Positions 9,467-16,293 of a stretch of 16,297 nucleotides of DNA are shown in pieces (the first letter of the stretch is position 1; each line of letters starts with the position of its first letter). Source of the DNA: Pseudomonadota bacterium (GTDB taxonomy: Bacteria > Pseudomonadota > Alphaproteobacteria > Rhizobiales > Rhizobiaceae); the NCBI GenBank assembly GCA_023387715.1, contig JAEWHQ010000105.1:1-16297 (forward strand). The letters are read 5' to 3'. A program made the position numbers and the translations under genes. Below the pieces are notes generated by a model. It did not search any database. It was not told where the DNA came from and was given only the letters and a program-made list of their open reading frames with translations.

Positions 9467-9889
9467 ATGCCCCGATCTGACCAAACCGGAATATGGGCGT
9501 CGCGACTGGCGCCCAATCTGACTGAAATCGAATCACTGACACTTCAGGCCTATGCACATCTGCCGCAAGAATTTCGCGAGCTGTGCCCCGACATGTCCCT
9601 TCATGTCGCTGATTTTCCCGACGATTCCATCATTGAAGATTTAGGTCTCGATACGCCTTTTGACCTGCTCGGCCTTTTTGAAGGTGCAGGTTTGGGCGAA
9701 CGCTTTAGCTTGCAAACAGACAATCAGCGTCCCAACCGCATGACCCTGTTTCGCCGTGCCATTCTTGATTATTGGTGTGAGCACGAAGAAACATTGCATG
9801 AAATTATCACCCATGTGCTCATTCATGAGATCGGCCACCACTTTGGCCTTAATGATGATGAAATGCTGGCCATGGATGCAGAAATCTGA
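9467..9889 (+). CDS. Small zincin-like metallopeptidase (DUF1025-type)
   Basis: 140-residue protein with a complete zinc signature, HEIGHHFGLND (residues 120-130), that is HExxH followed by G and D at the spacing of the minimal zincin proteins found next to leuD in many alphaproteobacteria. The upstream block DTPFDLLGLFEGAGLGERFS is also typical of the family as I remember it. No signal peptide or other domain is present. The substrate is unknown, and proteolysis has not been shown to my knowledge. The ATG at 9467 lacks a good ribosome binding site; translation may be helped by coupling to leuD 27 bases upstream. Followed by a strong terminator. Confidence 0.87.
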   Translation: MPRSDQTGIWASRLAPNLTEIESLTLQAYAHLPQEFRELCPDMSLHVADFPDDSIIEDLGLDTPFDLLGLFEGAGLGERFSLQTDNQRPNRMTLFRRAILDYWCEHEETLHEIITHVLIHEIGHHFGLNDDEMLAMDAEI

Positions 9890-9988: not shown

Positions 9989-11023
9989 TTAAGCCTGATG
10001 CGCCTTTGGTGTGATCAGGTCACGTGCGATCAGAAGTTCTGCGATCTGCACAGTGTTGAGCGCTGCACCTTTACGCAGGTTGTCGGAAACAACCCACAAG
10101 GACAGGCCATTTTCAACCGTGATATCTTCACGGATACGGCTGACGAAAGTTGCATCTTCACCGGCTGCTTCATAAGGGGTGATGTAACCACCGGCTTCAC
10201 GCTTGTCGATCACCTGAACACCTGGTGCATTGCGCAGGATTTCGGTGGCTTCCTGAGCGGAAATTTCGTTTTCAAACTCAATGTTCACAGCTTCCGAGTG
10301 ACCGATGAAAACCGGAACGCGCACAGCAGTTGCGGTGAGCTTGATCTTCGGATCAATCATCTTCTTGGTTTCAGCCGTGACCTTCCACTCTTCCTTCGTG
10401 TAGCCGTCTTCCATAAATTCGTCGATATGCGGAATGACGTTGAAGGCAATGCGCTTGGTGAAGGTTTTGTTGGTGACAGGATCGGCCACAAAAACAGCGC
10501 GGGACTGGGTGAACAGCTCATCCATGCCCTCTTTACCAGCACCCGATACGGACTGATAAGTGGCCACAACAACGCGCTTGATTTTAGCTGCATCATGAAG
10601 CGGCTTCAAAACCAGTACGAGCTGTGCAGTTGAGCAGTTCGGATTGGCAATGATATTGCGCTTTCTGAAGTCGTCAACCGCATCAGGGTTCACTTCCGGC
10701 ACGATAAGCGGCACATTGCTGTCATAGCGGAATGCAGAGGAATTATCGATGACAACGCAACCCTGTGCGCCGATCTTTGGTGACCATTCCTTGGAAACAT
10801 TGCCGCCAGCTGACATCAGACAGATATCGGTGTCGGAGAAATCATAATCATCCAGCGCTTTAGCCTTGAGGGTGCGGTCGCCATAAGCAACTTCTGTACC
10901 CACACTGCGACGCGATGCAAGTGCAACCACTTCATCTGCCGGAAAGCCGCGTTCTTCAAGAATATTGAGCATTTCGCGCCCGACATTGCCTGTAGCGCCA
11001 ACAACTGCAACTTTAAATCCCAT
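9989..11023 (-). CDS. asd: Aspartate-semialdehyde dehydrogenase
   Basis: Reduces aspartyl phosphate to aspartate semialdehyde with NADPH, the branch point to lysine/diaminopimelate, methionine, threonine and isoleucine. 344 residues, standard length. The N-terminal Rossmann motif is VAVVGATGNVG; the catalytic Cys is residue 130 in NPNCSTAQ and the base His is residue 242 in FIGHSEAVNIEF. I chose the ATG at 11023 (MGFKVAVVGATGNVG), which has AGGAG 6 bases upstream; an in-frame upstream ATG at 11074 adds a low-complexity Gly/Ser tail not seen in the family. Transcription likely starts near 11280, giving a leader of about 255 bases with a small Thr/Lys/Ile-rich ORF (see the leader entry). Confidence 0.97.
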   Translation of the reverse strand: MGFKVAVVGATGNVGREMLNILEERGFPADEVVALASRRSVGTEVAYGDRTLKAKALDDYDFSDTDICLMSAGGNVSKEWSPKIGAQGCVVIDNSSAFRYDSNVPLIVPEVNPDAVDDFRKRNIIANPNCSTAQLVLVLKPLHDAAKIKRVVVATYQSVSGAGKEGMDELFTQSRAVFVADPVTNKTFTKRIAFNVIPHIDEFMEDGYTKEEWKVTAETKKMIDPKIKLTATAVRVPVFIGHSEAVNIEFENEISAQEATEILRNAPGVQVIDKREAGGYITPYEAAGEDATFVSRIREDITVENGLSLWVVSDNLRKGAALNTVQIAELLIARDLITPKAHQA

Positions 11024-11081
11024 TATTATCTCCTGTCCCTCTCCGCTTCCAGAACCAGATTTTCCACACATCACGCGGAAA

Positions 11082-11111
11082 CCTCTGCCCCCGGACCAGA
11101 CCCGGGAGAGG
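11082..11111 (-). promoter_or_regulatory. GC-rich hairpin in the asd leader
   Basis: On the minus strand, CCTCTCCCGG (11111-11102) pairs with CCGGG (11094-11090) and, after a 3-base bulge, AGAGG (11086-11082), with a 7-base loop. It begins 19 bases after the stop of the small leader ORF and ends about 60 bases before asd. Only three U's follow, so it is a poor classical terminator. The mRNA segment ACCTCT inside the leader ORF (11184-11179) can pair with AGAGGT (11086-11081) and would open its base. An attenuator role is inference. Confidence 0.4.
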
Positions 11112-11130
11112 GCGAGCAGGCCAAGGGAAA

Positions 11131-11262
11131 TCAGACCGTTTTAATGGTCGTTTTCAACGTGGTAGCAATCGGTTTTATAGAGGTAGAAGACATGCGAACA
11201 TCTCCGGTGAAATCACCGGCAGTTTTCATCGAAACTGATAATGTTGCATCAACCCGTATCAC
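11131..11262 (-). CDS. Small leader ORF upstream of asd (candidate Thr/Lys/Ile leader peptide)
   Basis: A 43-codon ORF with a GTG start at 11262 and AGGAG 7 bases upstream, lying just downstream of a plausible promoter and ending 107 bases before asd. It contains a second possible start, ATG at 11193, with GGAG 8 bases upstream, giving a 20-residue peptide. Those last 20 residues contain 6 Thr, 3 Lys, 3 Ile and 1 Met, ending IATTLKTTIKTV. These are the amino acids made from the product of asd, and the size and composition resemble the E. coli thr operon leader. I recognise no protein family. A GC-rich hairpin follows the stop, and another perfect inverted repeat (CCGGTGA/TCACCGG, 11204-11219) covers the bases before the internal start. 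The leader-peptide reading is inference; a chance ORF remains possible. Confidence 0.5.
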   Translation of the reverse strand: MIRVDATLSVSMKTAGDFTGDVRMSSTSIKPIATTLKTTIKTV

Positions 11263-11286
11263 GCGAGTTCTCCTTGTCCACATGCG

Positions 11287-11314
11287 CTTTTAAGCTGTTT
11301 CACGCAAGAGTCAA
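11287..11314 (-). promoter_or_regulatory. Predicted asd promoter
   Basis: Minus-strand -35 TTGACT (11309-11314) and -10 TAAAAG (11287-11292) with a 16-base spacer. The predicted start near 11280 lies 18 bases before the GTG of the leader ORF, and no other gene could supply the transcript because a leuB terminator stands immediately upstream (11359-11391). Confidence 0.55.
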
Positions 11315-11358
11315 TTGGCAGGCTTTCAGCAGATCAAAAAATTCTGAAACAACGCCAT

Positions 11359-11391
11359 AAAAAAACGCCGCCAGTAAAGCGGCGGCGTTTT
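11359..11391 (-). terminator. Rho-independent terminator after leuB
   Basis: AAAACGCCGCC (11362-11372), 8-base loop, GGCGGCGTTTT (11381-11391): an 11-bp stem, with seven consecutive U's on the minus strand (11359-11365). It lies about 75 bases after the leuB stop and insulates asd from leuB transcription. Confidence 0.92.
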
Positions 11392-11416
11392 CAATAAGCA
11401 AAAAACTCATTATTAC

Positions 11417-15053: not shown

Positions 15054-15596
15054 TTATACTTCTTGTGCAGCGGTTGAGCCCATATCGGCTTCATCAGCCG
15101 ACAATTTCACAATCAGTGGCTCATGGCCGGTTGCACGCAAAAACACCAGCAAATCCTCGCGGCTGATGGATGTGGTTGCCTCATTGGTCAGCGGATGCGC
15201 ATTGATAATATCATTTTTCATCAGTGCCTCATCCAGTACCACCTGCACCTGGATGTCACGGTCATTGACCGCACCAAGCACAGTAACAGAACCCGGAATA
15301 ACCCCTAAAAGTTCCATCAAGAGTTCGGCCTTGCAAAAAGATACCCGACCGCTCGCGCCAATCAGATGATGCACCTGCTTCAAATCAACGACCGCATTAT
15401 CACCGACAGTCAGCAGAAAGATTTTGCCCTTCTTATCTTTAACAAAGAGGTTTTTGGTATGGGCGCCGTTTGATTCCAACCGATAGGCTTGCGATTCTGC
15501 CACCGTAAATAAAGGCGGATGGGTAATGGTTGTGTGTTTAACACCCAATTCATCCAGATATTCAAACAGTCCGGCAGGATCCAACGGCTTTTGCAT
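15054..15596 (-). CDS. Prolyl-tRNA editing deacylase ProX/PrdX-like (YbaK domain)
   Basis: 180-residue free-standing editing enzyme of the YbaK/ProX superfamily, expected to hydrolyse Ala-tRNA(Pro) made by mistake in the cytoplasm. Seen: THPPLFTVAESQA, then HTKNLFVKDKKG with the catalytic-site Lys, LLTVGDNAVVDLK, GVIPGSVTVLGAVND, and the C-terminal HPLTNEATTSISREDLLVFLRATGHEP. This C-terminus is typical of ProX/PrdX rather than EbsC or YbaK. I chose the ATG at 15596; a TTG at 15605 would add three residues, and neither has a strong ribosome binding site. First gene of a two-gene unit with the ABM protein. Confidence 0.9.
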   Translation of the reverse strand: MQKPLDPAGLFEYLDELGVKHTTITHPPLFTVAESQAYRLESNGAHTKNLFVKDKKGKIFLLTVGDNAVVDLKQVHHLIGASGRVSFCKAELLMELLGVIPGSVTVLGAVNDRDIQVQVVLDEALMKNDIINAHPLTNEATTSISREDLLVFLRATGHEPLIVKLSADEADMGSTAAQEV

Positions 15597-15673
15597 TGTC
15601 TTCAACTCATATTCGCTTCAACGATTCCATTTTCAAATCAATCTTATAGCAGTCACTTCCATGAACAAGCCAA

Positions 15674-15911: not shown

Positions 15912-15986
15912 GCGGGTGTAGCTCAGGGGTAGAGCACAACCTTGCCAAGGTTGGGGTCGAGGGTTCGAATCCCTTCGCCCGCTCCA
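15912..15986 (+). tRNA. tRNA-Gly (GCC)
   Basis: 75 bases with encoded CCA. Cloverleaf: acceptor GCGGGTG/CGCCCGC (one G-T pair), D arm GCTC/GAGC, anticodon arm CAACC/GGTTG with loop TTGCCAA (anticodon GCC), short variable loop, and T arm GAGGG/CCCTT with loop TTCGAAT. It is flanked by a perfect 12-bp inverted repeat, TTTAAGAACTGG (15895-15906) and CCAGTTCTTAAA (15984-15995), so the CCA end can pair with the leader in the precursor. Confidence 0.98.
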
Positions 15987-16218: not shown

Positions 16219-16293
16219 GCGGGTGTAGCTCAGGGGTAGAGCACAACCTTGCCAAGGTTGGGGTCGAGGGTTCGAATCCCTTCGCCCGCTCCA
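16219..16293 (+). tRNA. tRNA-Gly (GCC), second identical copy
   Basis: Identical over all 75 bases to the copy 307 bases upstream, with anticodon GCC and encoded CCA. The identity runs from 16203 (15896 in the first copy) to the window edge, at least 95 bases, including the leader bases that pair with the trailer. The separate promoter indicates that the copies are transcribed independently. Confidence 0.98.

What the first reader, a model, noticed from the sequence alone, without database searches (positions are those of the whole stretch)
11082..11283. Candidate aspartate-family leader peptide controlling asd
Upstream of asd there is a plausible promoter, a small ORF with AGGAG at ideal spacing, and an internal ATG with its own GGAG. 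The last 20 codons contain 6 Thr, 3 Lys, 3 Ile and 1 Met (ending IATTLKTTIKTV), 13 of 20 being amino acids made through Asd. A GC-rich hairpin follows the stop, and part of the ORF (ACCTCT) can pair with its 3' arm. The E. coli thrL peptide is similar in size and composition, but I know of no described Thr/Lys/Ile leader for asd in Rhizobiales. The weak point is that the hairpin has only three U's after it, so control might act on Rho access or mRNA stability rather than a simple terminator.
Basis: partly seen in the sequence, partly recalled or inferred. Interest (0 to 1): 0.75.

Follow-up and report, generated by a model that had tools for sequence, protein, structure and literature searches.

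The report
Threonine-sensing leader peptide before asd
A tiny gene just upstream of asd, which makes the common precursor of lysine, threonine and methionine, ends in a run of threonine and lysine codons and is kept next to asd in many rhizobia and their relatives, so it is very probably a sensor that lets the cell adjust asd to its threonine and lysine supply.

Summary
The small ORF before asd (probably GTG 11262 to TGA 11131, 43 codons; not ATG 11283) is the window's copy of a conserved leader peptide. Five or more Thr in the last 14 codons: 77 of 83 near relatives (shuffles 1 of 1660), 44 of 98 asd loci from across the order (3 of 1960), 3 of 42 from the class. Near-set tails are 41% Thr and 23% Lys; Ile and Met are rare. 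A covariance model gives 54 matches in 53 of 81 family genomes, 53 of them just before asd. The coding end keeps a hairpin beyond synonymous expectation (79 of 83; control mean 30.9, maximum 44). A covarying helix joins the spacer to the bases before the asd Shine-Dalgarno; no terminator is seen. I favour ribosome-mediated attenuation acting on asd translation: leader role about 0.9, translational output about 0.5; folding tests of the switch are mixed. Not wholly new: S. meliloti SEP5 (PMC10117765, passages) was proposed as such a leader, but called Sinorhizobium-only and, there, without an RNA mechanism.

The parts
11309..11314 (-). -35 box TTGACT of the leader-asd promoter
   Evidence: TTGACT upstream of the leader in 78 of 83 near-set loci; coordinates read
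11287..11292 (-). -10-like box TAAAAG, 16 nt from the -35 box
   Evidence: similar boxes seen by eye in most rows; inference from consensus, no start site mapped
11270..11275 (-). Shine-Dalgarno AAGGAG of the leader ORF
11131..11262 (-). leader ORF, GTG start, 43 codons plus TGA, ending IATTLKTTIKTV
   Evidence: Thr-rich tail conserved
11134..11149 (-). hairpin H1 inside the coding end: GACC (11149-11146) with GGTC (11137-11134), segment 1
   Evidence: compensatory third-base changes; 79 of 83 keep a stem of 4 or more pairs, synonymous-codon control mean 30.9, maximum 44
11119..11130 (-). segment 2, TTTCCCTTGGCC, just after the stop codon
   Evidence: conserved; columns pair with strand B in 93-99% of cells
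11105..11112 (-). strand A, CCCTCTCC, complement of the bases before the asd Shine-Dalgarno
   Evidence: helix A:C, main run 94% paired with two-sided changes in 4 of 6 pairs
11088..11097 (-). strand B, GGTCCGGGGG, 3' arm of hairpin P2 and alternative partner of segment 2
11061..11081 (-). hairpin P3 (TTTCC 11081-11077 with GGAAA 11065-11061)
   Evidence: covarying in relatives (helix 7)
11037..11044 (-). strand C, GGAGAGGG, pairs with strand A
11030..11034 (-). Shine-Dalgarno AGGAG of asd
   Evidence: its five columns are invariant in the 59-sequence alignment
9989..11023 (-). asd, aspartate-semialdehyde dehydrogenase
   Evidence: NCBIfam NF011456 and TIGR01296 above their cut-offs

Best explanation
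It is a ribosome-mediated attenuator: a 43-codon leader whose last codons are rich in Thr and Lys, read from its own promoter together with asd. Proposed working (inferred): when charged tRNA-Thr and tRNA-Lys are plentiful the ribosome reaches the stop codon and covers segment 2, so hairpin P2 forms and strand A pairs with strand C, hindering the start of asd. When Thr or Lys is short the ribosome stops on the run, covers segment 1 and leaves segment 2 free to pair with strand B. That holds strand A in a loop and exposes the asd Shine-Dalgarno. Without leader translation H1 (1:2) ties up segment 2 and asd stays low. Supported by computation: conservation, composition, covariation, one copy per genome at asd. 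Inferred: the signal, its direction and the translational output.
For: Thr tail 77/83 near and 44/98 order, against shuffles 1/1660 and 3/1960 and reverse complements 0/83 and 1/98. Third codon bases vary while Thr stays. H1 beyond synonymous expectation. H1, A:C, P2 and P3 together: 11 of 31 pairs with two-sided changes, 0 of 500 shuffles reach it. In transcripts cut after strand B, mean probability of 2:B is 0.61 with a ribosome on the Thr codons (above 0.3 in 74 of 81) and 0.02 with one at the stop (0 of 81) (2 of 83 dropped for want of the GGC anchor). With A withheld, the Shine-Dalgarno core's unpaired probability rises from 0.42 to 0.59 (54 up, 15 down of 83; window 0.25 to 0.69). 53 of 54 model matches sit just before asd. 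No U-tailed hairpin in the window. SEP5 is translated in S. meliloti (PMC10117765, passages).
Against: Equilibrium folding of the full leader shows no consistent switch: Shine-Dalgarno access with a ribosome at the sixth-last codon rises in 29 and falls in 34 of 83, so the model needs co-transcriptional kinetics. The contrast is partly built in, since the ribosome at the stop is set to cover segment 2. 2:B also forms often in shuffled spacers (551 of 996 against 77 of 83). Partner swaps show little co-evolution (2:B -11.86 against -11.65, A:C -21.95 against -21.3 kcal/mol, near set). The RNAalifold consensus of the 59 sequences shows H1, P3 and part of 2:B, not A:C or P2. The pairs that would cover the Shine-Dalgarno itself hold in only 76% of cells, and the outer H1 run in 71%. 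In the far set A:C is near chance (37 of 51 against 183 of 306), H1 is not enriched (8 of 55, control mean 6.4) and withholding A helps less (19 up, 11 down of 53). 54 of 98 order and 39 of 42 class loci miss the Thr criterion.
Confidence: 0.5

Rival explanations
1. Same leader and same sensing, but the output is transcriptional: in the repressed state the RNA is ended by Rho, or by hairpin P3 acting as a weak terminator, with no control of Shine-Dalgarno access.
For: P3 is followed by a short U run in 7 of 83 near-set loci (L003-L006, L019, L025, L074; shuffles 3 of 415), and L217, outside the order, has a ten-pair hairpin followed by a U run right after its Thr leader. The translational switch is not shown at equilibrium.
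Against: No U-tailed hairpin in the window, in 76 of 83 near or in 51 of 51 order leaders. P3 does not overlap segment 2, A or B, so the leader ribosome could not switch it directly. Helix A:C runs up to the asd Shine-Dalgarno. Rho was not testable here.
Confidence: 0.34
2. A translated upstream ORF that couples asd translation by ribosome delivery or mRNA stability, with the Thr/Lys run serving only as a slow stretch and not as a sensor of supply.
For: The leader looks translated and A:C would bring its stop near the asd start (inference).
Against: The run consists of end products of the Asd pathway, in leaders whose other residues differ widely.
Confidence: 0.1
3. A structured non-coding RNA element only; the ORF is incidental.
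For: H1 and the other helices covary in the near set.
Against: In the last seven codons first and second bases are kept (0.87-1.00) while third bases of the Thr and Val codons vary (0.54-0.82). In more distant loci Thr richness persists although H1 is not enriched. SEP5 is translated (PMC10117765, passages).
Confidence: 0.04
4. Chance composition with no regulatory meaning.
For: None found beyond the short length.
Against: Counts against shuffles and reverse complements; 53 of 54 model matches at asd.
Confidence: 0.01

Closest known systems
Sinorhizobium meliloti SEP5 sORF (Hadjeras 2023, PMC10117765; passages read)
   Same: Small ORF in the 5' UTR of what the paper calls the aspartate dehydrogenase gene (taken here to be asd), a cluster of six Thr and three Lys codons near its 3' end, proposed as a leader peptide; translation shown by Ribo-seq and a Western blot of a tagged fusion.
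   Different: The paper calls it conserved only in Sinorhizobium and, in the passages read, gives no RNA structure or mechanism. Its sequence was not seen here, so orthology is not tested.
E. coli thrL leader and other trp/his/thr-type transcription attenuators (recalled)
   Same: Leader with a run of end-product codons; mutually exclusive pairings read by a ribosome.
   Different: thrL controls thrABC through an intrinsic terminator and senses Thr and Ile; here the gene is asd, Lys accompanies Thr, and no terminator is seen in the window.
LEU element of actinobacterial leuA (PMC1262725; passages read)
   Same: Leader peptide with a codon run whose RNA bears on the Shine-Dalgarno of the biosynthetic gene.
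   Different: There the Leu codons themselves pair with the Shine-Dalgarno; here a spacer strand pairs beside it, and gene and phylum differ.
S. meliloti trpL/rnTrpL attenuator (PMC10117765, passages)
   Same: Leader peptide attenuator in the same order.
   Different: trpL is a leaderless 14-codon ORF of a transcription attenuator.

Membership tests
Ribosome-mediated attenuator (amino-acid leader), any output | Short ORF before a biosynthetic gene, rich in codons for the pathway's end product | tested here: met
   77 of 83 near, 44 of 98 order loci; near set Thr 41%, Lys 23%
Ribosome-mediated attenuator (amino-acid leader), any output | Mutually exclusive helices 1:2, 2:3 and 3:4 | tested here: inconclusive
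   H1 and the sequestering helices covary; 2:B counted with H1 is 96% paired, but swap and shuffle controls are weak
Ribosome-mediated attenuator (amino-acid leader), any output | Expression of the gene responds to supply of the amino acid through leader translation | not testable with these tools
   no expression data here
Transcription attenuator (thrL/trpL type) | Intrinsic terminator between leader and gene | tested here: not met
   No U-tailed hairpin in the window; 7 of 83 near, 0 of 51 order, 1 of 4 class leaders have one
Translational attenuator with Shine-Dalgarno occlusion | Covarying helix that hides the start region of the downstream gene | tested here: inconclusive
   A:C covaries but lies beside the Shine-Dalgarno; the pairs over it hold in 76% of cells and the core is only partly occluded
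Translational attenuator with Shine-Dalgarno occlusion | Ribosome stalling in the leader frees the start region | tested here: inconclusive
   Yes in truncated transcripts and when A is withheld; no at equilibrium
S. meliloti SEP5 leader | Same place and Thr/Lys cluster before asd | tested here: met
   against the description read
S. meliloti SEP5 leader | Sequence orthology | not tested
   No named Sinorhizobium locus was fetched and supplements could not be read
Any Rfam family, including the threonine leader and the streptococcal asd motif (names recalled) | Match at gathering score | tested here: not met
   Only two tRNAs in the window; up to E 5 in 10990-11400 only matches below gathering score, none of them these families

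The most novel reading that the evidence does not exclude
A widespread Rhizobiales family of Thr/Lys leaders at asd in which the classical 1:2/2:3/3:4 logic ends in a lock on the asd start site instead of a terminator, while at least one alphaproteobacterium outside the order (L217) pairs the same kind of sensor with a true terminator: one sensor, two interchangeable outputs.
Probability: 0.4. Interest if true: 0.65.

Novelty: new variant of a known kind. Interest (0 to 1): 0.5.

Why it matters
Asd makes the branch-point intermediate of lysine, threonine, methionine and diaminopimelate, so this would be a supply sensor on the whole aspartate family in rhizobia, ochrobactra and their kin. It turns a one-genus suggestion (SEP5) into a testable rule for many families with defined RNA parts, and would show an amino-acid leader acting without a terminator.

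Tried and rejected
Start at ATG 11283: too close to the -10-like box. Known RNA family: none. Known protein family for four leaders: none above cut-off in NCBIfam or Pfam. Folding of the window's whole leader is not unusually stable (z -0.55). Equilibrium Shine-Dalgarno accessibility: no consistent switch. Partner-swap energies: little signal. P3 as a general terminator: not supported. H1 outside the near set: not enriched. Further copies: the pattern for TTKTV-stop occurs in 58 of 151 family genomes, once each, against 10 hits of the reversed-pattern control; I did not check that all 58 lie at asd. The covariance model gives one weak match away from asd (G037:C57, E 0.037).

Literature: nine answered searches. 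Among their listings I recognised only PMC10117765 as dealing with an asd leader in this group; I judged by titles and abstract starts, and read passages in five papers (PMC10117765, PMC1273637, PMC10272879, PMC1262725, PMC3896937), none in full. The library holds open-licence PMC papers only; Vitreschak 2004 was not read.

Full report
What is there. asd lies at 11023-9989 on the minus strand. Upstream, behind a terminator-like hairpin downstream of leuB (11384-11366), come a TTGACT/TAAAAG promoter (11314-11287), AAGGAG (11275-11270), and an ORF from GTG 11262 to TGA 11131 that ends IATTLKTTIKTV. Then follow 107 bases to the asd ATG. The ORF's last 20 codons hold 13 of T, K, I or M, the most of 463 stop-ended stretches in the window.

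Conservation. Most of its named members are genera of Rhizobiales, so I take the tools' 'order' to be that. An ORF ending 60-200 nt before asd with 5 or more Thr in its last 14 codons is found in 77 of 83 (reverse complement 0 of 83; shuffles 1 of 1660). To reach further I searched asd in 111 genomes of the order (110 with a match) and 104 of the class (95 with a match). I fetched about 500 bases upstream (one contig end gave less) of 98 of 114 order matches and 42 of 111 class matches, picked by hand mostly from the upper part of the lists. The Thr ORF is in 44 of 98 (reverse complement 1; shuffles 3 of 1960) and 3 of 42 (0; 0 of 840). Four of the 140 have a poorly placed asd start (L131, L137, L185, L209) and were kept in these counts. 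With a distance limit of 250 nt, 23 of 48 sampled families of the order have at least one such leader. The other loci may have lost it, never had it, or carry it outside the limits.

What is sensed. In the near set Thr is 41% and Lys 23% of the last 14 codons, Ile 2.9%, Met 1.4%. In the far set of 55 leaders, chosen for at least 4 Thr (L137 dropped for its odd start), Lys is still 17%. Tails such as TTTVSKTTTTKTTV or TLTTFTTTTSVKTT share little with KTTTKTV except the amino acids. In the near set first and second bases of the last seven codons are 0.87-1.00 conserved; third bases of the Thr and Val codons are 0.54-0.82. This is the mark of a translated Thr/Lys run. Lys at positions -7 and -3 is AAA in 77 of 77 each.

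RNA structure. Within the coding end GACC pairs with GGTC (H1). Its outer pair is G-C in 63 and C-G in 14 of 83, unpaired in 6; its inner pair is C-G in 56, G-C in 19 and A-T in 2 of 83, otherwise unpaired. A quick asd tree needs 10 and 9 changes of these states, unpaired states included. 79 of 83 keep a stem of at least 4 pairs; with codons replaced by synonyms the mean is 30.9 and the maximum 44 in 500 draws. In the alignment of 59 (56 distinct) sequences the proposed structure has 89% paired cells and 11 of 31 pairs with two-sided changes, reached in 0 of 500 shuffles. It beats every slid control on paired cells and covariation score, though the +3 slide has 41 cells with two-sided changes against 39. 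Weaker parts are the outer H1 run (71%) and the pairs over the asd Shine-Dalgarno (76%). RNAalifold's own consensus of these sequences shows H1, P3 and part of 2:B, but not A:C or P2. Of the other 24 near-set sequences 18 were aligned apart; their consensus shows H1 and a pairing of strand A with the purine-rich bases before asd, with almost no variation. Six were not aligned (L015, L020, L022, L037, L038, L054). Helix A:C (CCCTCTCC with GGAGAGGG) runs up to the asd Shine-Dalgarno; among 54 loci looked at by eye, several divergent ones have different but complementary versions.

Specificity. A covariance model built from the 59 gives 54 matches in 53 of 81 family genomes. Compared by eye with the asd positions in the same 81 genomes (79 with a match), 53 of the 54 lie on the asd strand within 90 nt of its start, nearly all touching it; the exception has E 0.037. 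TTGACT lies upstream of the leader in 78 of 83.

Mechanism. With a ribosome placed on the Thr codons and the transcript cut after strand B, segment 2 pairs with B (mean 0.61; above 0.3 in 74 of 81). With the ribosome at the stop it does not (0.02; 0 of 81), and in full-length transcripts A:C pairs dominate (2 of 83 dropped). Part of this contrast follows from the blocked bases. Against shuffled spacers 2:B is enriched but far from unique (77 of 83 against 551 of 996; far set 46 of 54 against 336 of 648); A:C is enriched in the near set (77 of 82 against 290 of 492) but hardly in the far set (37 of 51 against 183 of 306). If 2:B withholds A, the Shine-Dalgarno core becomes freer in 54 and less free in 15 of 83 (window 0.25 to 0.69), and in 19 and 11 of 53 in the far set. 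Equilibrium folding of the whole leader gives no consistent switch (29 up, 34 down of 83). So the anatomy fits the classical 1:2, 2:3, 3:4 scheme with a start-site lock in place of the terminator, but the switch itself is a model. The terminator is missing from the window, 76 of 83 near and 51 of 51 order leaders; L217, outside the order, has one.

Prior knowledge. In passages of Hadjeras 2023 (PMC10117765) SEP5 of S. [quoted passage not shown] I take that gene to be asd (inference). The present result extends this kind of leader to many families and supplies RNA parts. Corbino 2005 (PMC1273637, searched for terms) has no occurrence of asd or aspartate. Amino-acid RNA control at the Shine-Dalgarno has precedents in the LEU element (PMC1262725, passages) and a proposed his element of Corynebacterium (PMC3896937, passages); the ilvB leader of Corynebacterium is described as transcriptional (PMC10272879, passages).

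Verdict. Leader peptide sensing Thr, with Lys: about 0.9. New variant of a known kind; interest 0.5.

Noticed in passing
window 11154-11152 and 11142-11140, and near relatives: Lys codons at positions -7 and -3 of the leader are AAA in 77 of 77 cases each although AAG is synonymous; the reason is not known.
   Followed up: partly
L217:390-414: In an unnamed alphaproteobacterial genome outside the order the Thr/Lys leader before asd is followed by a strong intrinsic terminator.
   Followed up: partly
L003-L006, L019, L025, L074, hairpin P3: P3 is followed by a short U run in these seven of 83 near-set loci.
   Followed up: partly
L021 and L034 (Bartonella): The leader tail has drifted to HKKTTKKII, with fewer Thr and more Lys and Ile, while a TTGACA box and the spacer remain.
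   Followed up: no
window 15912-15986 and 16219-16293: Two tRNA-Gly(gcc) genes with the same Rfam score stand about 300 bases apart.
   Followed up: no
window 15054-15605 (-): ORF with an aminoacyl-tRNA editing domain (PF04073) in the same window.
   Followed up: no
window 9467-9889 (+): Zincin-like metallopeptidase (PF06262) ORF just beyond asd, also beside asd in L001.
   Followed up: no
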